Shown here: positions 5,170-31,500 of the stretch, one piece after another | Layout of the letters: each line of letters opens with the position of its first letter | Position numbering within the stretch: position 1 is the stretch's first letter | Assembly (NCBI GenBank): GCA_027604685.1 | Contig: JADHYX010000051.1 | Span: forward strand, 422 to 64,421 | Direction: 5' to 3' | Length of the DNA: 64,000 nt | DNA from: Lobulomyces angularis | Taxonomy: Eukaryota > Chytridiomycota > Chytridiomycetes > Lobulomycetales > Lobulomycetaceae | Program-made: the position numbers and the translations under genes | Notes under the pieces: generated by a model | Database searches by the model: none | Seen by the model: only the letters and a program-made list of their open reading frames with translations | What the model was told of the DNA's origin: nothing

Positions 5170-5526
5170 TCAATTATTTTTTCCTTCCCCGGAAATATTA
5201 CCACTGGCTGTATTTAAACTTCTTTTTACCCTTCCTTCACCAGATATATTGTCATTTACTACATTCAAGCTTCTTTTTACCCTTCCTTCACCAGAGATAT
5301 TGTCCTTTGAGACTCTCAACCTTCTTTTTACTCTCCCTTCCCCTGAGATATTATCGTTGGCGATTTTCAAGCTTCTTTTTACTCTCCCTTCACCTGAGAT
5401 GTTTTTTAGATTGAACAGTTTAGGGTGATCTTTAGTTTGAGTTGTATCAAGAGAACTGGAAGACAAATGGGAGCTTGACACATAGGTTAAAATAGCTGTA
5501 ATGACTAGATATAAAGGAAATTTCAT
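5170..5526 (-). CDS. secreted repeat peptide precursor with Lys-Arg processing sites
   Basis: Intronless 118-residue ORF. Residues 1-19 (MKFPLYLVITAILTYVSSS) look like a signal peptide. After a short spacer, from residue 42 to the end, a 17-residue unit repeats five times (starting at residues 42, 59, 76, 93 and 110; the last is partial). Each unit begins NISGEG; the first four continue RVKR. The core is invariant, while the residues after KR vary (SLKIAND, RLRVSKD, SLNVVND, SLNTASG). VKR is a typical site for kexin-like protease. Cleavage would release three 15-residue peptides and a 16-residue C-terminal peptide, all sharing NISGEG. NIS is also an N-glycosylation sequon. The layout resembles fungal alpha-factor pheromone precursors and other Kex2-processed repeat proteins, but I recognise no known mature peptide. 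Confidence 0.85.
   Translation of the reverse strand: MKFPLYLVITAILTYVSSSHLSSSSLDTTQTKDHPKLFNLKNISGEGRVKRSLKIANDNISGEGRVKRRLRVSKDNISGEGRVKRSLNVVNDNISGEGRVKRSLNTASGNISGEGKNN
5173..5403 (-). repeat. 51-bp tandem coding repeat, 4.5 copies
   Basis: In-frame tandem array inside the peptide precursor. Units lie at 5403-5353, 5352-5302, 5301-5251, 5250-5200 and a partial one at 5199-5173. The half encoding NISGEGRVKR is the most conserved. Synonymous differences between copies, for example in the Ile, Ser and Gly codons, suggest the peptide sequence is being kept rather than that the array is freshly duplicated. Confidence 0.9.
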
Positions 5527-6014
5527 TTTATTTTGAGAAGTTTTTTATTATTTTTTCATTTTTTTTTGCTCATTTTAAAGACTTTGAGCTTCCATAGTGG
5601 TGGTTAATGTAAGAGATTTTGAAAGGCTGAGTGAAAAATTTTCTATGAGATTTGATTAAAATTTGCATCTCCTTTAACTTTACCAAAAACCTTATTTATG
5701 CATCTTTATTCATTAAGCAGCAGCAACAAGAAAATTTTATGTTCAAAAGGAATAGGTTATTTGGGAGCTGAACCTGCTTTTTTTGCAAACGACATTGCAA
5801 AAGTTATACATTGTTAAAATTTCCTAAGTGAAAATTATATGTTTGTTTAGGAACATACTTAAAACTCTGCAACAAGTAAGGGATATTGTAGTACTATTAT
5901 GTTAACTCTCAGTTATTTAATATTGTAAACTTTTTTTTGAGAAGTACGTCCCTTTTTTCATTCTTAAGTTTTTTTGCCATTTTTTTTTTTTTTTTCCTGT
6001 TTTCTCTTTAAGCC
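5527..6014. other. divergent intergenic region
   Basis: Shared upstream region of the peptide precursor (-) and the RNF121-like gene (+). The middle is less AT-biased than other spacers and contains AGCAGCAGCAAC near 5718. No further gene is visible. Confidence 0.5.
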
Positions 6015-7437
6015 ATGGCCGATGCAGTAACAGAAACCTTTGTAGCAGTTCTACCAAGTATTATAATTGACAATCAAGGACGCCAACACAGCATTGATGA
6101 ACTTACTGATCAACAAAAATCCCTTCTCAAGGAAAAAATGTATGCTTAACCACCTTTTTTTTTTTATTTATCTACTTACCTACTTTTTTTTTTACCAAAA
6201 GAATTTTTCAACATGAGCATGCTGGTAAAAATATTACCAATCAATCAGTAAATTTAAGTAAAACTTTTTAATTTTGAATTGCAGGACATGAAGAAACGCA
6301 TGCTAGAATGGGATTAATTTTGTTAACTGCATTGATATCCGTTCAATTTTTAATAATGTTTTGGAAAAAATACCACAAAAAAAGTTTTGACTGGGCTAGT
6401 TTAATGGGATTATTGATTGTTCCTCCATTATTAGCTATAAACGCAGGAAATTATCGTTATCTGATAATTTGGTTCCTTTTTGCACTAACTAATTTTTTTG
6501 TGGTTCGGTTAGCATTTGAAAAACCTTTAAGAAATTCTACTCCTGGATTTGTATATCGTTTTTACGCCTGGACTTATACACTAAGTTATATCATTGGATT
6601 TTTTGGCCTATTTATTACAATCTCTGCTCTTTTTAGGTAATTTTTTGTGCGTAGAACACTCATTTGTTTGAATATTTGCATGATATGTAAAAATTTTTGC
6701 TAACAATGATGTATTTTAGATTACCCGAAAAATTATTTTCAATTAAAGAGCAAAGTGAGATTTTTATGTTTCAAGGGGGATTAATTATGCTATTTTATGG
6801 ATTATATTTTGGATGTTTAGGAAGAGATATAGTTGATAGGTTATCAGAAGCTATGGCTGCAAGTATTGGATATTACAATAGAAAAGGGTGAGTAATATGA
6901 AATTTCTTTTCTATTAAAACATATTTAATAAAAAGTTTTCCTGCAAAGCATTTGAGAGATAGCATTTGTGCAATTTGTGGTTTGACAACCACAAATGCTA
7001 AACAAGCAGAATATATTAATCCTACAGAGGAAAAAAATTTGTTTTGGTGGTTTAATGGTATTTTAGGACATTATGGACAAACAAAAGTTGGTAATAGTTA
7101 CCAATTAAATTGTAAGCATATTTACCATGAAAGTTGCATAAGAGGTTGGACTTTGATAGGAAAAAAAGGTACTAAAAATTTTATTGAAAAAAAAAAATTT
7201 ACGTTGAATTTAGATTGCTGCCCTTACTGTAAGGAAAAGGTTAATCTGAAAGTTTTTAGTCAAGGCTCTAATCCATGGGATACAACTCAATTACTCTACT
7301 TAAATCTTCTCGATGCCCTAAGATGTATTTTTTTTATTTTTTTAAAACCATTTCTTACTTTTTTAGATGTCATTGTGTGGAATCCAATGGTCTTTTTTAT
7401 TATTCATTATGTGTTTATTATTTTTGACATGAAATAA
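6015..7437 (+). CDS. RNF121: RNF121/RNF175-type membrane RING E3 ligase
   Basis: Predicted ER/Golgi-membrane ubiquitin ligase. Start MADAVTETFVAVLPSI at 6015. Early exons carry GHEETHARMGLILLTALIS, as in animal RNF121. Several hydrophobic segments follow (LITALISVQFLIMFW region, LLIVPPLLAINAG, YLIIWFLFALTNFFVV, SYIIGFFGLFITISALF, LIMLFYGLYFGCLGRD). The RING comes next: CAICGLTT, then CKHIYHESCIRGWTLIGKK and CCPYCKEKV, then SNPWDTTQLLYLNLLDALR and a final membrane segment. The zinc ligands have the family's H2-type centre (CKHIYHESC). Compared with human RNF121 the RING carries a longer insert between its first cysteine pair and the C-x-H-x3-H core. An extra lysine-rich stretch precedes the last CPYC. 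Confidence 0.88.
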
Positions 7438-16257: not shown

Positions 16258-19200
16258 CTATTTTTTTTTTAATGTTCTACTCACAGATATATTACTTATT
16301 CGACTAGCATGTCTTCCCAAATTACTGGAATTCCCAACGGATTTCTTTTCTTTAGGACTTATTGCAACATTACTTGAACTATCCTTAGCTGCATTTCCAT
16401 GAGGCTCATGACTAATGACTGTCTGTTGTGAGGGGTTTACAACTGAATCTGGTGGTAGATGTCCCTGAATGTTACTATCATCAGAATTGCTATGGTCCTG
16501 TGATAGGTTAATTTCACTATGGGCAGGATAACCATTATGCATGTTAACTAATTTTTGATTTAAACTCAAATTACTCGTACTAATTTCATTTAAATATTTG
16601 CTTGTTCTTGCTTTATTCCCTAACAAACTTAGGCTTTGCCTTTGAGAGTGCACCAATGGGTGCTGTTGAGATAATTGATTTGATGTTGCTGAAGTAGGTT
16701 TATCTTCAGTCCCTGATAAATTAGAGGTTAGCCGTTCAATAGGAGAGGGTGGCAGTTGTATAGCAGCTAAAATTTGTACCATTATTAAATAAATGATTGC
16801 CTTCATTATAAATTACCCGCAAGTGGAATGAACATTGAATTTGATAAAGAACCCTCAGCTAAAAAACAAAATTGAAGTTATTTAAAAAAAAATATATTTT
16901 GCTTACACTTTGTTTCACTTATATAACTAAAGGCAAAGTAATACTGCTGAGCTAAGAAGATTTAAAGATGAATACGATTAAAATGCAAAAATTACCTTTA
17001 TTCAAATTTTCTAAACAGAGAAATTTTTCTTTCAGGTCAATAAATGGTACTTCTACAACAGCGCCATGCATATCATGCTCAAAACTAGAATATATTTTTC
17101 TACCAATGACATGACTGTTAAAAGGTGACTCTTCATCAGCCTTCTGCAAATTTGATAGTTGGAGGTTGTTCTCGCATATTTTTAAATTATCTCTAAATTC
17201 AAATAATACACTTGTAGTAGATATTATCTTAAAATTTGGTAAAATTTTTGGGGTAGGTATCATGTGTTCTTTACAATAATTAAGAAAATTATAAATCAGT
17301 CAGAGAGATATAAAGTATTACCTAAATCAATTTCATCGCTAAAATAGCTTTCATCACTAAATCCGTAATCATTCATCGCTAAGACTTTTACTTTAAAATT
17401 GTAACCGAGATTTAAATTATCCAATACATAAGTAAACTTGGTACAGGAAATAAAGTTAACATTTTCAGATGAGCCTTTTTCTTCCATATTAAAGTCATCA
17501 ACATTATTGCCGCTGTAATGTTCTTGAAACTTTTTTTCATTTCCTCTAACTGCAATTAGAATTTCCTCTTCAATTAGATTATTTTCTTTGATTTTTTCTT
17601 CTTCCTCATAAATTTCCGTATTGGTCTTTTTTTCTACAATGATTTCTTTTTTTTTCGACTTATTACTTATATTAAGGTCATTGCTGTTGTAACCTTTTTT
17701 CTGTGATTTAAATAATTTCAGTTTGTACGAAGTAACTTCACTCCCCAGATTTTTTTCTACTGTGCAGGAAATTTTAACACAGTGTGTCGAAATTCTTTCA
17801 ACTATTGGTTTCGAAGGCGTATTTGGCTTAACATCTAATGAGAGATTAAAATTTATAAAAAAAAAATTTTAAAATAAATTTACCAATCTTAATACAATCA
17901 GTTGTGTCACTGTGTGGTCCCTCGCCTGAACCATTGATTGCGGTTACCGAAAAATAGTGCTCAGTTAACAGTGTAGGATCAGTGTAGCAAAATTTTACTT
18001 TAGAAGTTTCACAAGACTTTTTTTCTTGAGGTAACATCATGTTGATAGCATTAATATCTACCTTATATTCAGCTGTATCTTTCACAGCTAGTATCAAGTT
18101 TTTTTCACCACAATCAACTTCACAGTTGACTGATGTGGATTCAGCAGAGGTTTCAATTACATCATTCTTCTCTTTGAACGAATCGTGAGAGTTATTGTCA
18201 GATTCGATTAAAGCATTTGCGCTTAAAGGATTTTTAATATCTTGCTCCTCATTTCCATGATCTTCTATAATTTCAGTTTCCATAGTCAAAATATTTTCAG
18301 AAACAACATTACTATCAACTTCATTTTTTTTTTCAGAGAATAACGTTTTTTCACGGTCATCAACGGTAACTTCTTCTTCTGGATCAAAAGTGTCACTTGG
18401 TATTTCTGCAATCAAAAACTTATCTGACATATCCGGAAAATTACTATGATAAACGTGATATTTCCTAATTTTACTCTCTCCTATTCTACTTAACACCGAA
18501 TCAATCAGCAATTCTATTTCCGGCTCTTCGTTTCGAATTTTAATTGAAACTGAAGGTTTGTTAGGTTTTTCCGGTAAAATATCTACAAACCAAAAAATAT
18601 AGAGAATATTAACTAAAAACATTACCTGCAAGAATTCCACTTTCTATTTTAAATGCTTCACCTCTAACTCCTTGAAACGCAGAAAAGCAGTCAAAGTAGT
18701 AATATGCACCATTTTTCAGGTTTGAAAATTTTACATTAACTTTAGTCATAGTTTGTTGACTATTTGAAGTATTGCTAAAATTAATGGCTTCCTTAACTTC
18801 ACTTGAATTAACAAATTCTTTGTAGTTTAATTTGAATTCCTTTAATAACTTAATATTTTTCGAATCTTCAAAACATCGCACAAAAATTGCATCCCATTCA
18901 AAGTTTATCAGTGGTTTAAAATCAAAATTAAGAATTAATTCAATTTCAGTGGGGCTTTGATTTTCTAAAGGTTTTAAGTTTACTTTCGGTAATCTATCGA
19001 TTAGAAGCTTTAATTTTTGCTTTTCCTGCTCATCCTTTTCCCTTTTATCGCAAACCTTACATATCTGATCTTTACTACTTTTATTATGTACTGCTTTAAA
19101 CCGATAAATTGACAACGATGCAATTTCCTTATCTTTTTCTTTTAACAAATTTTCTAAGTTGTCAGTTTTATTTTTATAAACGTAATTTTCTTCCTTGATA

Positions 19201-30132: not shown

Positions 30133-31500
30133 ATGAGATTTAAAATAGTTTTACTGTTTAATATAATCCAAATTATTATATCATCAAGTTCCGACCACTG
30201 TTCCTACATACATCAGTGCAAAGACACTGTCTTAAGAAGCTCTGACTTGAAGTACAAAATAGCTTGCTATAACACTGAAAAACAAATTTGTGGACCAAAA
30301 CCTTTCACCAAGATTGATGGTAAAAATTTATATGTAAAATGCGTTTCCGGCTTTAAGGTTGTTGACTGCTTAAAATCAGACTACAAGGCTTGGGTGGAAA
30401 AAAAATTAAAATCAGTAGTTACAGGGGAAAAATCCGTTATTCCCGCAGAAAGTTCATCCTGTGACCTAGATCGATGCAGCAGTTCCCAAAATAATGAGTG
30501 CTTAGTTCTGCACCAATGGTTACCTGACTATTTTTCAAAAGTTGATGAGTGTTGTTCAGCTGGAAGATATGTTACTTGCAATAAATTTAATCAAATAACT
30601 AGATTGTACGCAAAAATAAAAATTAATAACGAATTGTTTTACATTTGTTTGTTTAGGAACCTGGGGGATAAATCAATAACTAGTATACCCAATGACATTT
30701 TTAAATTTCGGGAATTGATATTGCTGTAATAATATTTGATTTTACTTTTATAAATTAATGATTTTAGTGATCTTTCCTTTAATCAAATTAACGGTTCTAT
30801 TCCCTCGAATATCGGAAAACTTAAAAAGCTGAAGTTTTTGTGAGTAAAATTCCTAATCACATTTCCTTACCTAAATTTGATAGAAATTTGAGCGGGAATA
30901 AGTTAAAAGACAGCATACCAGCAAGTTTAGGAGACTTAGAAAATCTTACTGGATTGTATTTAAAATTTTTTTTTAATTTAATTATTGCTGCTCTATAGGT
31001 GGTTAGCGTTAAATAAATTAACTGGAAGCATTCCACCCGAACTTGGTAACCTATCAAGACTTCAAACATTGTATTTTATAATCTTTCTGTAAACTTTAAA
31101 TCATTGTTTAAGGTTTTTAAGTGGTAATGAATTAAGTGGAGAATTACCTGAAAGATTATTTCTACTCTCAGAATTGAAACATCTGTAAATCTTAATTTGT
31201 TTTTTTAATTTTTTTAATTTAAATGCAGATATTTAAATATGAATCTACTTGAAGGAAAATTACCAAAAATGTCCAAGTTAACAAATTTACAACAGCTGTA
31301 ACATTTAAATGAAAAATTTACAATTTTTTAATATTTTTAGTGATCTTAGCTACAATCAATTTTCTGGAAAATTGCCGAATTTTAGTCAACTGCAGTTAAG
31401 AGAATGCAATCTTTATTCACTAATGAATGTATGCAATTCGGAAGGTGTAGAAATCCACAGTGCCTGTAAATCTACAAATACATACACAAGTAAGAAATAA
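30133..31500 (+). CDS. secreted leucine-rich repeat protein, plant-type repeats
   Basis: Signal peptide (MRFKIVLLFNIIQIIISSSS), then a Cys-rich N-terminal region of about 140 residues (DHCSYIHQCKDTV, CYNTEKQICGPKP, DECCSAGRYVTC). At least six LRRs of the 24-residue plant type follow, e.g. DLSFNQINGSIPSNIGKLKK, NLSGNKLKDSIPASLGDLEN, LALNKLTGSIPPELGNLSRL. A short Cys-containing end follows (ECNLYSLMNVCNSEGVEIHS). Exons: 30133-30605, 30657-30725, 30768-30839, 30884-30955, 30999-31070, 31113-31184, 31229-31297, 31341-31500. Every intron is phase 2 and cuts the same Leu codon. No kinase domain or membrane anchor is seen. A donor at the very end (ACA A^GTAAGA) could give an alternative two-residue tail (KC). 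Confidence 0.85.

What the first reader, a model, noticed from the sequence alone, without database searches (positions are those of the whole stretch)
5170..5526. Secreted Kex2-type repeat precursor releasing a family of short peptides
Seen: a signal peptide, then five 17-residue units with an invariant NISGEG core; four continue RVKR, and the residues after KR vary (SLKIAND, RLRVSKD, SLNVVND, SLNTASG). The gene has no intron in an intron-dense region. Known: repeat units separated by Lys-Arg are the layout of alpha-factor-type pheromone precursors, Kex2-processed repeat proteins and some cyclic-peptide (dikaritin) precursors. Inference: processing would yield 15-residue peptides that could serve as mating or zoospore signals, or as host-directed effectors. 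Variable flanks around a fixed core suggest the core is the recognised part. The NIS sequon could be glycosylated.
Basis: partly seen in the sequence, partly recalled or inferred. Interest (0 to 1): 0.85.

Follow-up and report, generated by a model that had tools for sequence, protein, structure and literature searches.

The report
Orphan Kex2-type repeat peptide precursor
A probable chytrid fungus carries a small gene for a secreted-looking protein that seems built to be cut into several near-identical short peptides; this layout is well known in fungi, but no relative of these particular peptides was found and their role is unknown.

Summary
In detail: window 5170-5526, minus strand, is one uninterrupted 118-codon ORF with a signal-peptide-like N-terminus and five NISGEG units at a 17-residue period; four continue RVKR. 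It is more than chance. Between repeats every change in the NISGEG core is synonymous (pS 0.72, pN 0; P 6.5e-5 in a no-selection simulation), whereas residues after KR differ freely. The same genome encodes a Kex2 homologue nearest to yeast kexin and a Kex1-like carboxypeptidase. One copy only was found in the 20.8-Mb genome and no relative in two searches of a 5.8-billion-protein collection. By hand count it meets the repeat rules of two published KEP (Kex2-processed repeat protein) definitions. Three 15-residue peptides, one 16-residue C-terminal peptide and one long N-terminal fragment are expected, not five equal peptides. Alpha-pheromone and dikaritin membership is not supported: no Ste13 dipeptides, no Tyr in the repeats; no UstYa or STE2 match, but without positive control. 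The organism is probably a chytrid (mitochondrial TAG = Leu); species unknown. Verdict: new member of a known kind, function open.

The parts
5170..5526 (-). whole precursor ORF, 118 aa, no intron, TGA stop
5473..5526 (-). signal-peptide-like N-terminus, residues 1-18 (MKFPLYLVITAILTYVSS); cleavage point is a heuristic guess
   Evidence: hydropathy (11-residue means 2.0-2.3 over residues 3-17), rule-based scan; no SignalP available
5374..5472 (-). N-terminal fragment, residues 19-51, up to the first KR; holds the first NISGEG
   Evidence: in-silico cleavage
5323..5373 (-). repeat peptide SLKIANDNISGEGRV + KR
5272..5322 (-). repeat peptide RLRVSKDNISGEGRV + KR
5221..5271 (-). repeat peptide SLNVVNDNISGEGRV + KR
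5173..5220 (-). C-terminal peptide SLNTASGNISGEGKNN (16 aa, no dibasic site)

Best explanation
The gene encodes a Kex2-processed repeat protein (KEP). The protein enters the ER by its N-terminal signal (inferred), may be N-glycosylated at the five N-I-S sequons (inferred), is cut in the Golgi by the genome's Kex2 after each of the four KR pairs (inferred from sequence; the enzyme is shown to be encoded) and trimmed of K-R by a Kex1-like carboxypeptidase (inferred; a candidate is encoded). It would release three 15-residue peptides ending in NISGEGRV, a 16-residue C-terminal variant and a longer N-terminal fragment. The NISGEG part is what selection keeps (indicated by synonymous-only change between repeats); the seven residues before it are loosely constrained. 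Several near-identical copies most likely raise the yield of one activity that depends on the core, as is supposed for other KEPs. What the peptide acts on, self or another organism, is not determined.
For: Layout. Core constraint: five NISGEG cores, pS 0.715 against pN 0; the minimum of 7 changes are all synonymous where 5.2 nonsynonymous are expected (P 6.5e-5 by simulation); for NISGEGRVKR over four units 6 of 6 are synonymous (P 1.7e-4). First and second codon positions are polymorphic in 7 of 10 columns of the variable stretch against 0 of 8 in RVKR (Fisher, one-sided, P 0.004) and 0 of 20 in NISGEGRVKR (P 5.9e-5). The sense frame has 11 of 17 invariant columns against 4, 4, 4, 5 and 9 in the other five frames. 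Kex2: S8 exons and a P-domain match (32.6 bits, cut-off 21, one stop inside the matched stretch) at C3:164.3-165.8k; the motifs around the catalytic Asp, His, Ser and the oxyanion Asn, and a C-terminal membrane segment, are in the frame translations; best PDB hit kexin, E 2.9e-55 and 2.4e-24, ahead of furin. Kex1: the C28 carboxypeptidase segment tested hits KEX1 best, E 9.5e-23 against 3.2e-9 for carboxypeptidase Y. Published precedents of the layout: PMC6339444 (passages and section 24 seen), PMC7329392 (passages and section 13 seen).
Against: No expression, peptide or protein data. No trained signal-peptide prediction. No homologue found, so there is no conservation between species, only between repeats of one gene, which are few and not independent. 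The codons for V-K-R vary nowhere, not even at silent places, so conservation of KR alone could partly reflect recent homogenisation. One antisense frame is also open over most of the array (59 aa from TTG, 5249-5428) and keeps 9 of 17 columns. Only three units lie between two KR sites, the minimum of the definition.
Confidence: 0.78

Rival explanations
1. A secreted or wall-bound repeat glycoprotein that is not cut: the repeated N-I-S sequon is the point, and RVKR is only a basic spacer.
For: Sequon present in 5 of 5 units; many secreted fungal repeat proteins are structural (general knowledge).
Against: Four RVKR sites kept while the adjacent residues change; a kexin homologue is encoded; the protein is short, without cysteine or an evident C-terminal anchor (sequence), and a sequon alone would not need SGEG kept.
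Confidence: 0.12
2. An alpha-factor-type mating pheromone precursor in the strict sense (Ste13-trimmed, Ste2-sensed), a special case of a KEP.
For: Signal, pro-region and KR-separated repeats are the same layout.
Against: No XA or XP dipeptides after KR (SL, RL, SL, SL instead); no STE2 match in the genome (nothing rang in the controls; STE3 was not searched); no similar protein found.
Confidence: 0.05
3. A dikaritin or ustiloxin-type RiPP precursor whose core is cyclised by UstYa-family enzymes, another special case of a KEP.
For: Kex2-separated repeats behind a signal-like N-terminus.
Against: No Tyr in any repeat unit; no UstYa/DUF3328 match in the genome (nothing rang in the controls); Table 1 of PMC7329392 counts 0 of 178 chytrid KEP genes with a DUF3328 gene nearby (passage).
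Confidence: 0.02
4. Not a gene: a noncoding tandem repeat with a chance open frame.
For: No homologue found; AT-rich window with many low-score tandem repeats (40 rows at score 40 or more); an antisense frame is open as well.
Against: 13 of 20 polymorphic columns are third codon positions and every core change is synonymous; GC of the ORF 36% against 30% for the window.
Confidence: 0.03

Closest known systems
KEX2-processed repeat proteins (KEPs), PMC6339444 (2019) and PMC7329392 (2020)
   Same: Signal-like N-terminus; three similar fragments of 8-100 aa between KR sites; repeats take well over 15% of the protein (3 x 17 of 118 = 43%). KEPs are reported in 14 of 19 Chytridiomycota strains surveyed, 178 in all (Table 1 passage of PMC7329392).
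   Different: No sequence relative found; RVKR rather than bare KR; an N-glycosylation sequon inside every core; no Ste13 signature.
Ascomycete alpha-pheromone precursors (MFalpha1 type)
   Same: Signal, pro-region, KR-separated repeats.
   Different: No EA/DA-type dipeptides after KR; no STE2 match found (no positive control); a variable stretch within each released peptide.
Dikaritin precursors (ustiloxin, phomopsin)
   Same: Kex2-separated repeats behind a signal peptide.
   Different: No Tyr in the repeats; no UstYa match found (no positive control); no gene cluster seen.

Membership tests
KEP | ER signal peptide | tested here: inconclusive
   Hydropathy and a home-made rule only; SignalP not available
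KEP | At least 3 repeats of 8-100 aa between Kex2 sites (PMC7329392); at least 3 similar fragments after KR/RR cleavage (PMC6339444) | tested here: met
   By hand count: exactly 3 units bounded by KR on both sides, plus one C-terminal and one N-terminal copy. The papers' own repeat-scoring programs were not run
KEP | Repeats cover at least 15% of the protein (PMC6339444) | tested here: met
   3 x 17 of 118 residues = 43%
KEP | A Kex2 protease in the genome | tested here: met
KEP | Peptides actually released | not testable with these tools
   needs mass spectrometry
Alpha-pheromone precursor | Ste13 XA/XP dipeptides after KR | tested here: not met
   SL, RL, SL, SL follow the four KR sites
Alpha-pheromone precursor | Ste2-type receptor in the genome | tested here: inconclusive
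   no match, but nothing rang in the controls either
Dikaritin precursor | UstYa-family (DUF3328) enzyme | tested here: inconclusive
   no match, but nothing rang in the controls either
Dikaritin precursor | Tyr in the core for cyclisation (feature recalled) | tested here: not met
   no Tyr in any repeat unit

The most novel reading that the evidence does not exclude
NISGEG peptides are an extracellular peptide signal of a chytrid (between zoospores, gametes or thalli, or towards its host), read through the invariant, possibly glycosylated N-I-S-G-E-G core: a defined peptide-signal candidate for a lineage whose signals are largely unknown.
Probability: 0.15. Interest if true: 0.7.

Novelty: new member of a known kind. 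Interest (0 to 1): 0.33.

Why it matters
[quoted passage not shown] A short precursor with a sharply defined conserved core gives an exact set of peptides to look for. On its own it adds one orphan member to a class with 7878 predicted members in one survey (PMC7329392, passage). In Coprinopsis cinerea, knocking out six KEP genes gave no detectable phenotype (abstract and passages of PMC9769878), so a strong function should not be assumed.

Tried and rejected
Paralogues: whole-genome DNA search, protein search (E up to 10) and two degenerate-pattern searches found no second copy; the tool warns that only the best candidates are scored. The NISGEG pattern with up to 1 mismatch gave 18 places against 14 for the reversed control; nine of the 18 lie in two arrays, five here and four in a mitochondrial contig. 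I read the frames at the ten other places or arrays and saw no other KR array. The GEGRVKR pattern with up to 2 mismatches gave 50 places against 69 in the control; only the four sites of this array matched without mismatch, and the one site with a single mismatch (C349) is in a 28-residue frame without repeats. The other 45 were not read.

Homologues: none at E up to 10 with the native query (5478 candidates) or with a longer query meant to reach precursors with more repeats (only the 7993 candidates sharing most words were scored). That search needs shared 5-residue words. None confirmed in viral contigs (21 pattern matches, none a relative). PDB: one hit at E 6.7. Pfam: two hits, both below cut-off, taken as chance. 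The nearest relatives of a neighbouring VPS13-like exon are 45% and 36% identical and unnamed, so absence of the precursor from the collection says little about close kin.

Carboxypeptidases: of five contigs with S10 matches three were compared with PDB, C127 and C150 (nearest carboxypeptidase Y) and C28 (nearest KEX1; another part of the protein was used there); C209 and C243 were not.

Literature: paper searches for the assembly found nothing. A search on chytrids, Kex2, secreted peptides, pheromones and zoospores listed 15 of 39 papers; I opened only the KEP papers among them, so I make no claim about what else is in print. NISGEG occurs in 3 papers, 2 listed, neither relevant by title. Passages only were seen of PMC6131824, PMC6572847, PMC10861067 and PMC13391722; they did not identify the species. 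S-G-E-G also fits the Ser-Gly-X-Gly glycosaminoglycan-attachment consensus of animals (recalled); not tested, probably chance.

An intended sample of the genome, to count other KEPs, could not be fetched, so the number of KEPs in this genome is unknown. rRNA searches did not complete. No structure was predicted.

Full report
What is there. The ORF at window 5170-5526 lies on the minus strand and reads 118 codons from ATG to TGA without a break. Upstream and divergent is a gene starting at 6015 whose frames I read as an RNF121-like membrane RING protein (recalled resemblance; the RING frame reached only a sub-threshold Pfam match). Two minute upstream reading frames precede the ATG; the start of transcription is unknown.

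The repeats. NISGEG recurs five times at exactly 17 residues; identities at shift 17 are 44 of 83, against 7 of 85, 3 of 84 and 5 of 82 at shifts 15, 16 and 18. Tandem Repeats Finder reports the 51-bp period on its own. A repeat alone would be no evidence of a gene, so I tested how the copies have changed. In the five NISGEG cores all five polymorphic columns are third codon positions; pS is 0.715 and pN 0. Random substitution on the consensus gave only synonymous changes in 6.5e-5 of trials. In the last five residues before the next core, over four units, pN is 0.41 and pS 0.73. First- and second-position columns vary in 7 of 10 of that stretch and in 0 of 8 of RVKR (P 0.004). So the core is held by selection on the protein, and the RVKR site probably too. 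Cautions: the V-K-R codons do not vary at silent places either, so homogenisation may contribute there; numbers are small; the copies are not independent; and one antisense frame is open over most of the array and keeps 9 of 17 columns against 11 of 17 in the sense frame.

Chance. Of 82 ATG ORFs of at least 60 aa in the window only this one has a word repeated three times and only this one has KEP layout; 0 of 28 in the reversed window. My signal-peptide rule passed 4 of 82 (1 of 28 in the control). It is crude and rejects hydrophobic cores holding N or Q.

Processing machinery. Family searches of the genome gave S8 peptidase matches at 18 places on nine contigs and one P-domain match, the latter near the best S8 match on C3. 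Frame translations there show a signal-like start, a pro-region with KKR and FKRK, DDGLDYD, DDRHGTRCAGE, SWGPSDNG, TGNGG, GGTSAAAPLASG, a Ser/Thr-rich stalk and a membrane segment with an acidic tail. PDB comparison ranks yeast kexin first for both S8 exons (2.9e-55; 2.4e-24), furin next. In the printed alignments the acidic residues that I recall as lining Kex2's S1 and S2 pockets are mostly kept; the second Asp of kexin's PADDG is Asn here; the numbering is recalled, not looked up. Of three serine carboxypeptidase genes compared, out of five contigs with matches, the C28 gene is nearest to Kex1 and two are nearest to carboxypeptidase Y.

Products. Cutting after each KR leaves a 33-residue N-terminal fragment (with signal cleavage assumed after residue 18), three 17-mers that become 15-mers after loss of K-R, and a 16-mer.

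Relatives. Only one array was found in the genome. Two searches of the protein collection returned only the window's own protein. As even a VPS13-like exon of the window has its nearest match at 45% identity, close relatives are probably not in the collection, and I do not conclude that the gene is species-specific.

Organism. G000 is 20.76 Mb in 533 contigs, the window 30% GC. Contig C145 carries a frame that I read as mitochondrial ATP6 (no family search was run on it); it has in-frame TAG codons under the standard code and is open for 366 codons with TAG as leucine. PMC6131824 says that this code, table 16, applies to the chytrid mitogenomes assembled there (passage). A Kex2 nearest to yeast kexin fits a fungus. 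That is good evidence for a chytrid, not proof; the species was not identified. The same mitochondrial frame begins with five 10-residue repeats that also contain NISGE; with only about 15 bp alike and pattern counts near the control I take this as coincidence, unexplained.

Compared with what is known. By hand count the repeat features of both KEP definitions are met, the signal peptide is only indicated, and peptide release is untested. Alpha-pheromone status fails on the Ste13 signature; dikaritin status fails on the lack of Tyr (feature recalled). KEPs average 9.37 per chytrid strain (SD 10.64; found in 14 of 19 strains) in one survey (passage of PMC7329392), so finding one is unsurprising. 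What is specific here is the orphan sequence, the sequon within the conserved core, and the contrast between fixed core and variable N-terminal half.

Verdict. A real, probably functional peptide precursor of a known kind; secreted peptide release is the most likely mechanism, and what the peptides do is unknown.

Noticed in passing
G000 contig C145:43969-44118, minus strand (within L022 and L051): A frame read as mitochondrial ATP6 (TAG = Leu) is preceded in frame by five 10-residue tandem units NISGE(S/N)(P/A)LL(Y/N/T). It shares NISGE with the nuclear array, about 15 bp of similar DNA and nothing beyond. Pattern counts (18 against 14 in the control) make coincidence likely; not explained.
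   Followed up: partly
window 16258-16806 (-) and 30133-30729 (+): Two further single-exon ORFs with hydrophobic, signal-like N-termini by eye (my rule did not pass them) and no Pfam match; the second is cysteine-rich.
   Followed up: no
G000 contigs C342, C181, C5, C221, C248, C53, C97, C381: Besides the kexin on C3 there are S8 subtilase matches on eight further contigs, so several subtilases or remnants are encoded.
   Followed up: no
window 5548-5573 (-): Two minute upstream reading frames (MSKKK-stop and MKK-stop) lie just before the precursor's ATG.
   Followed up: no
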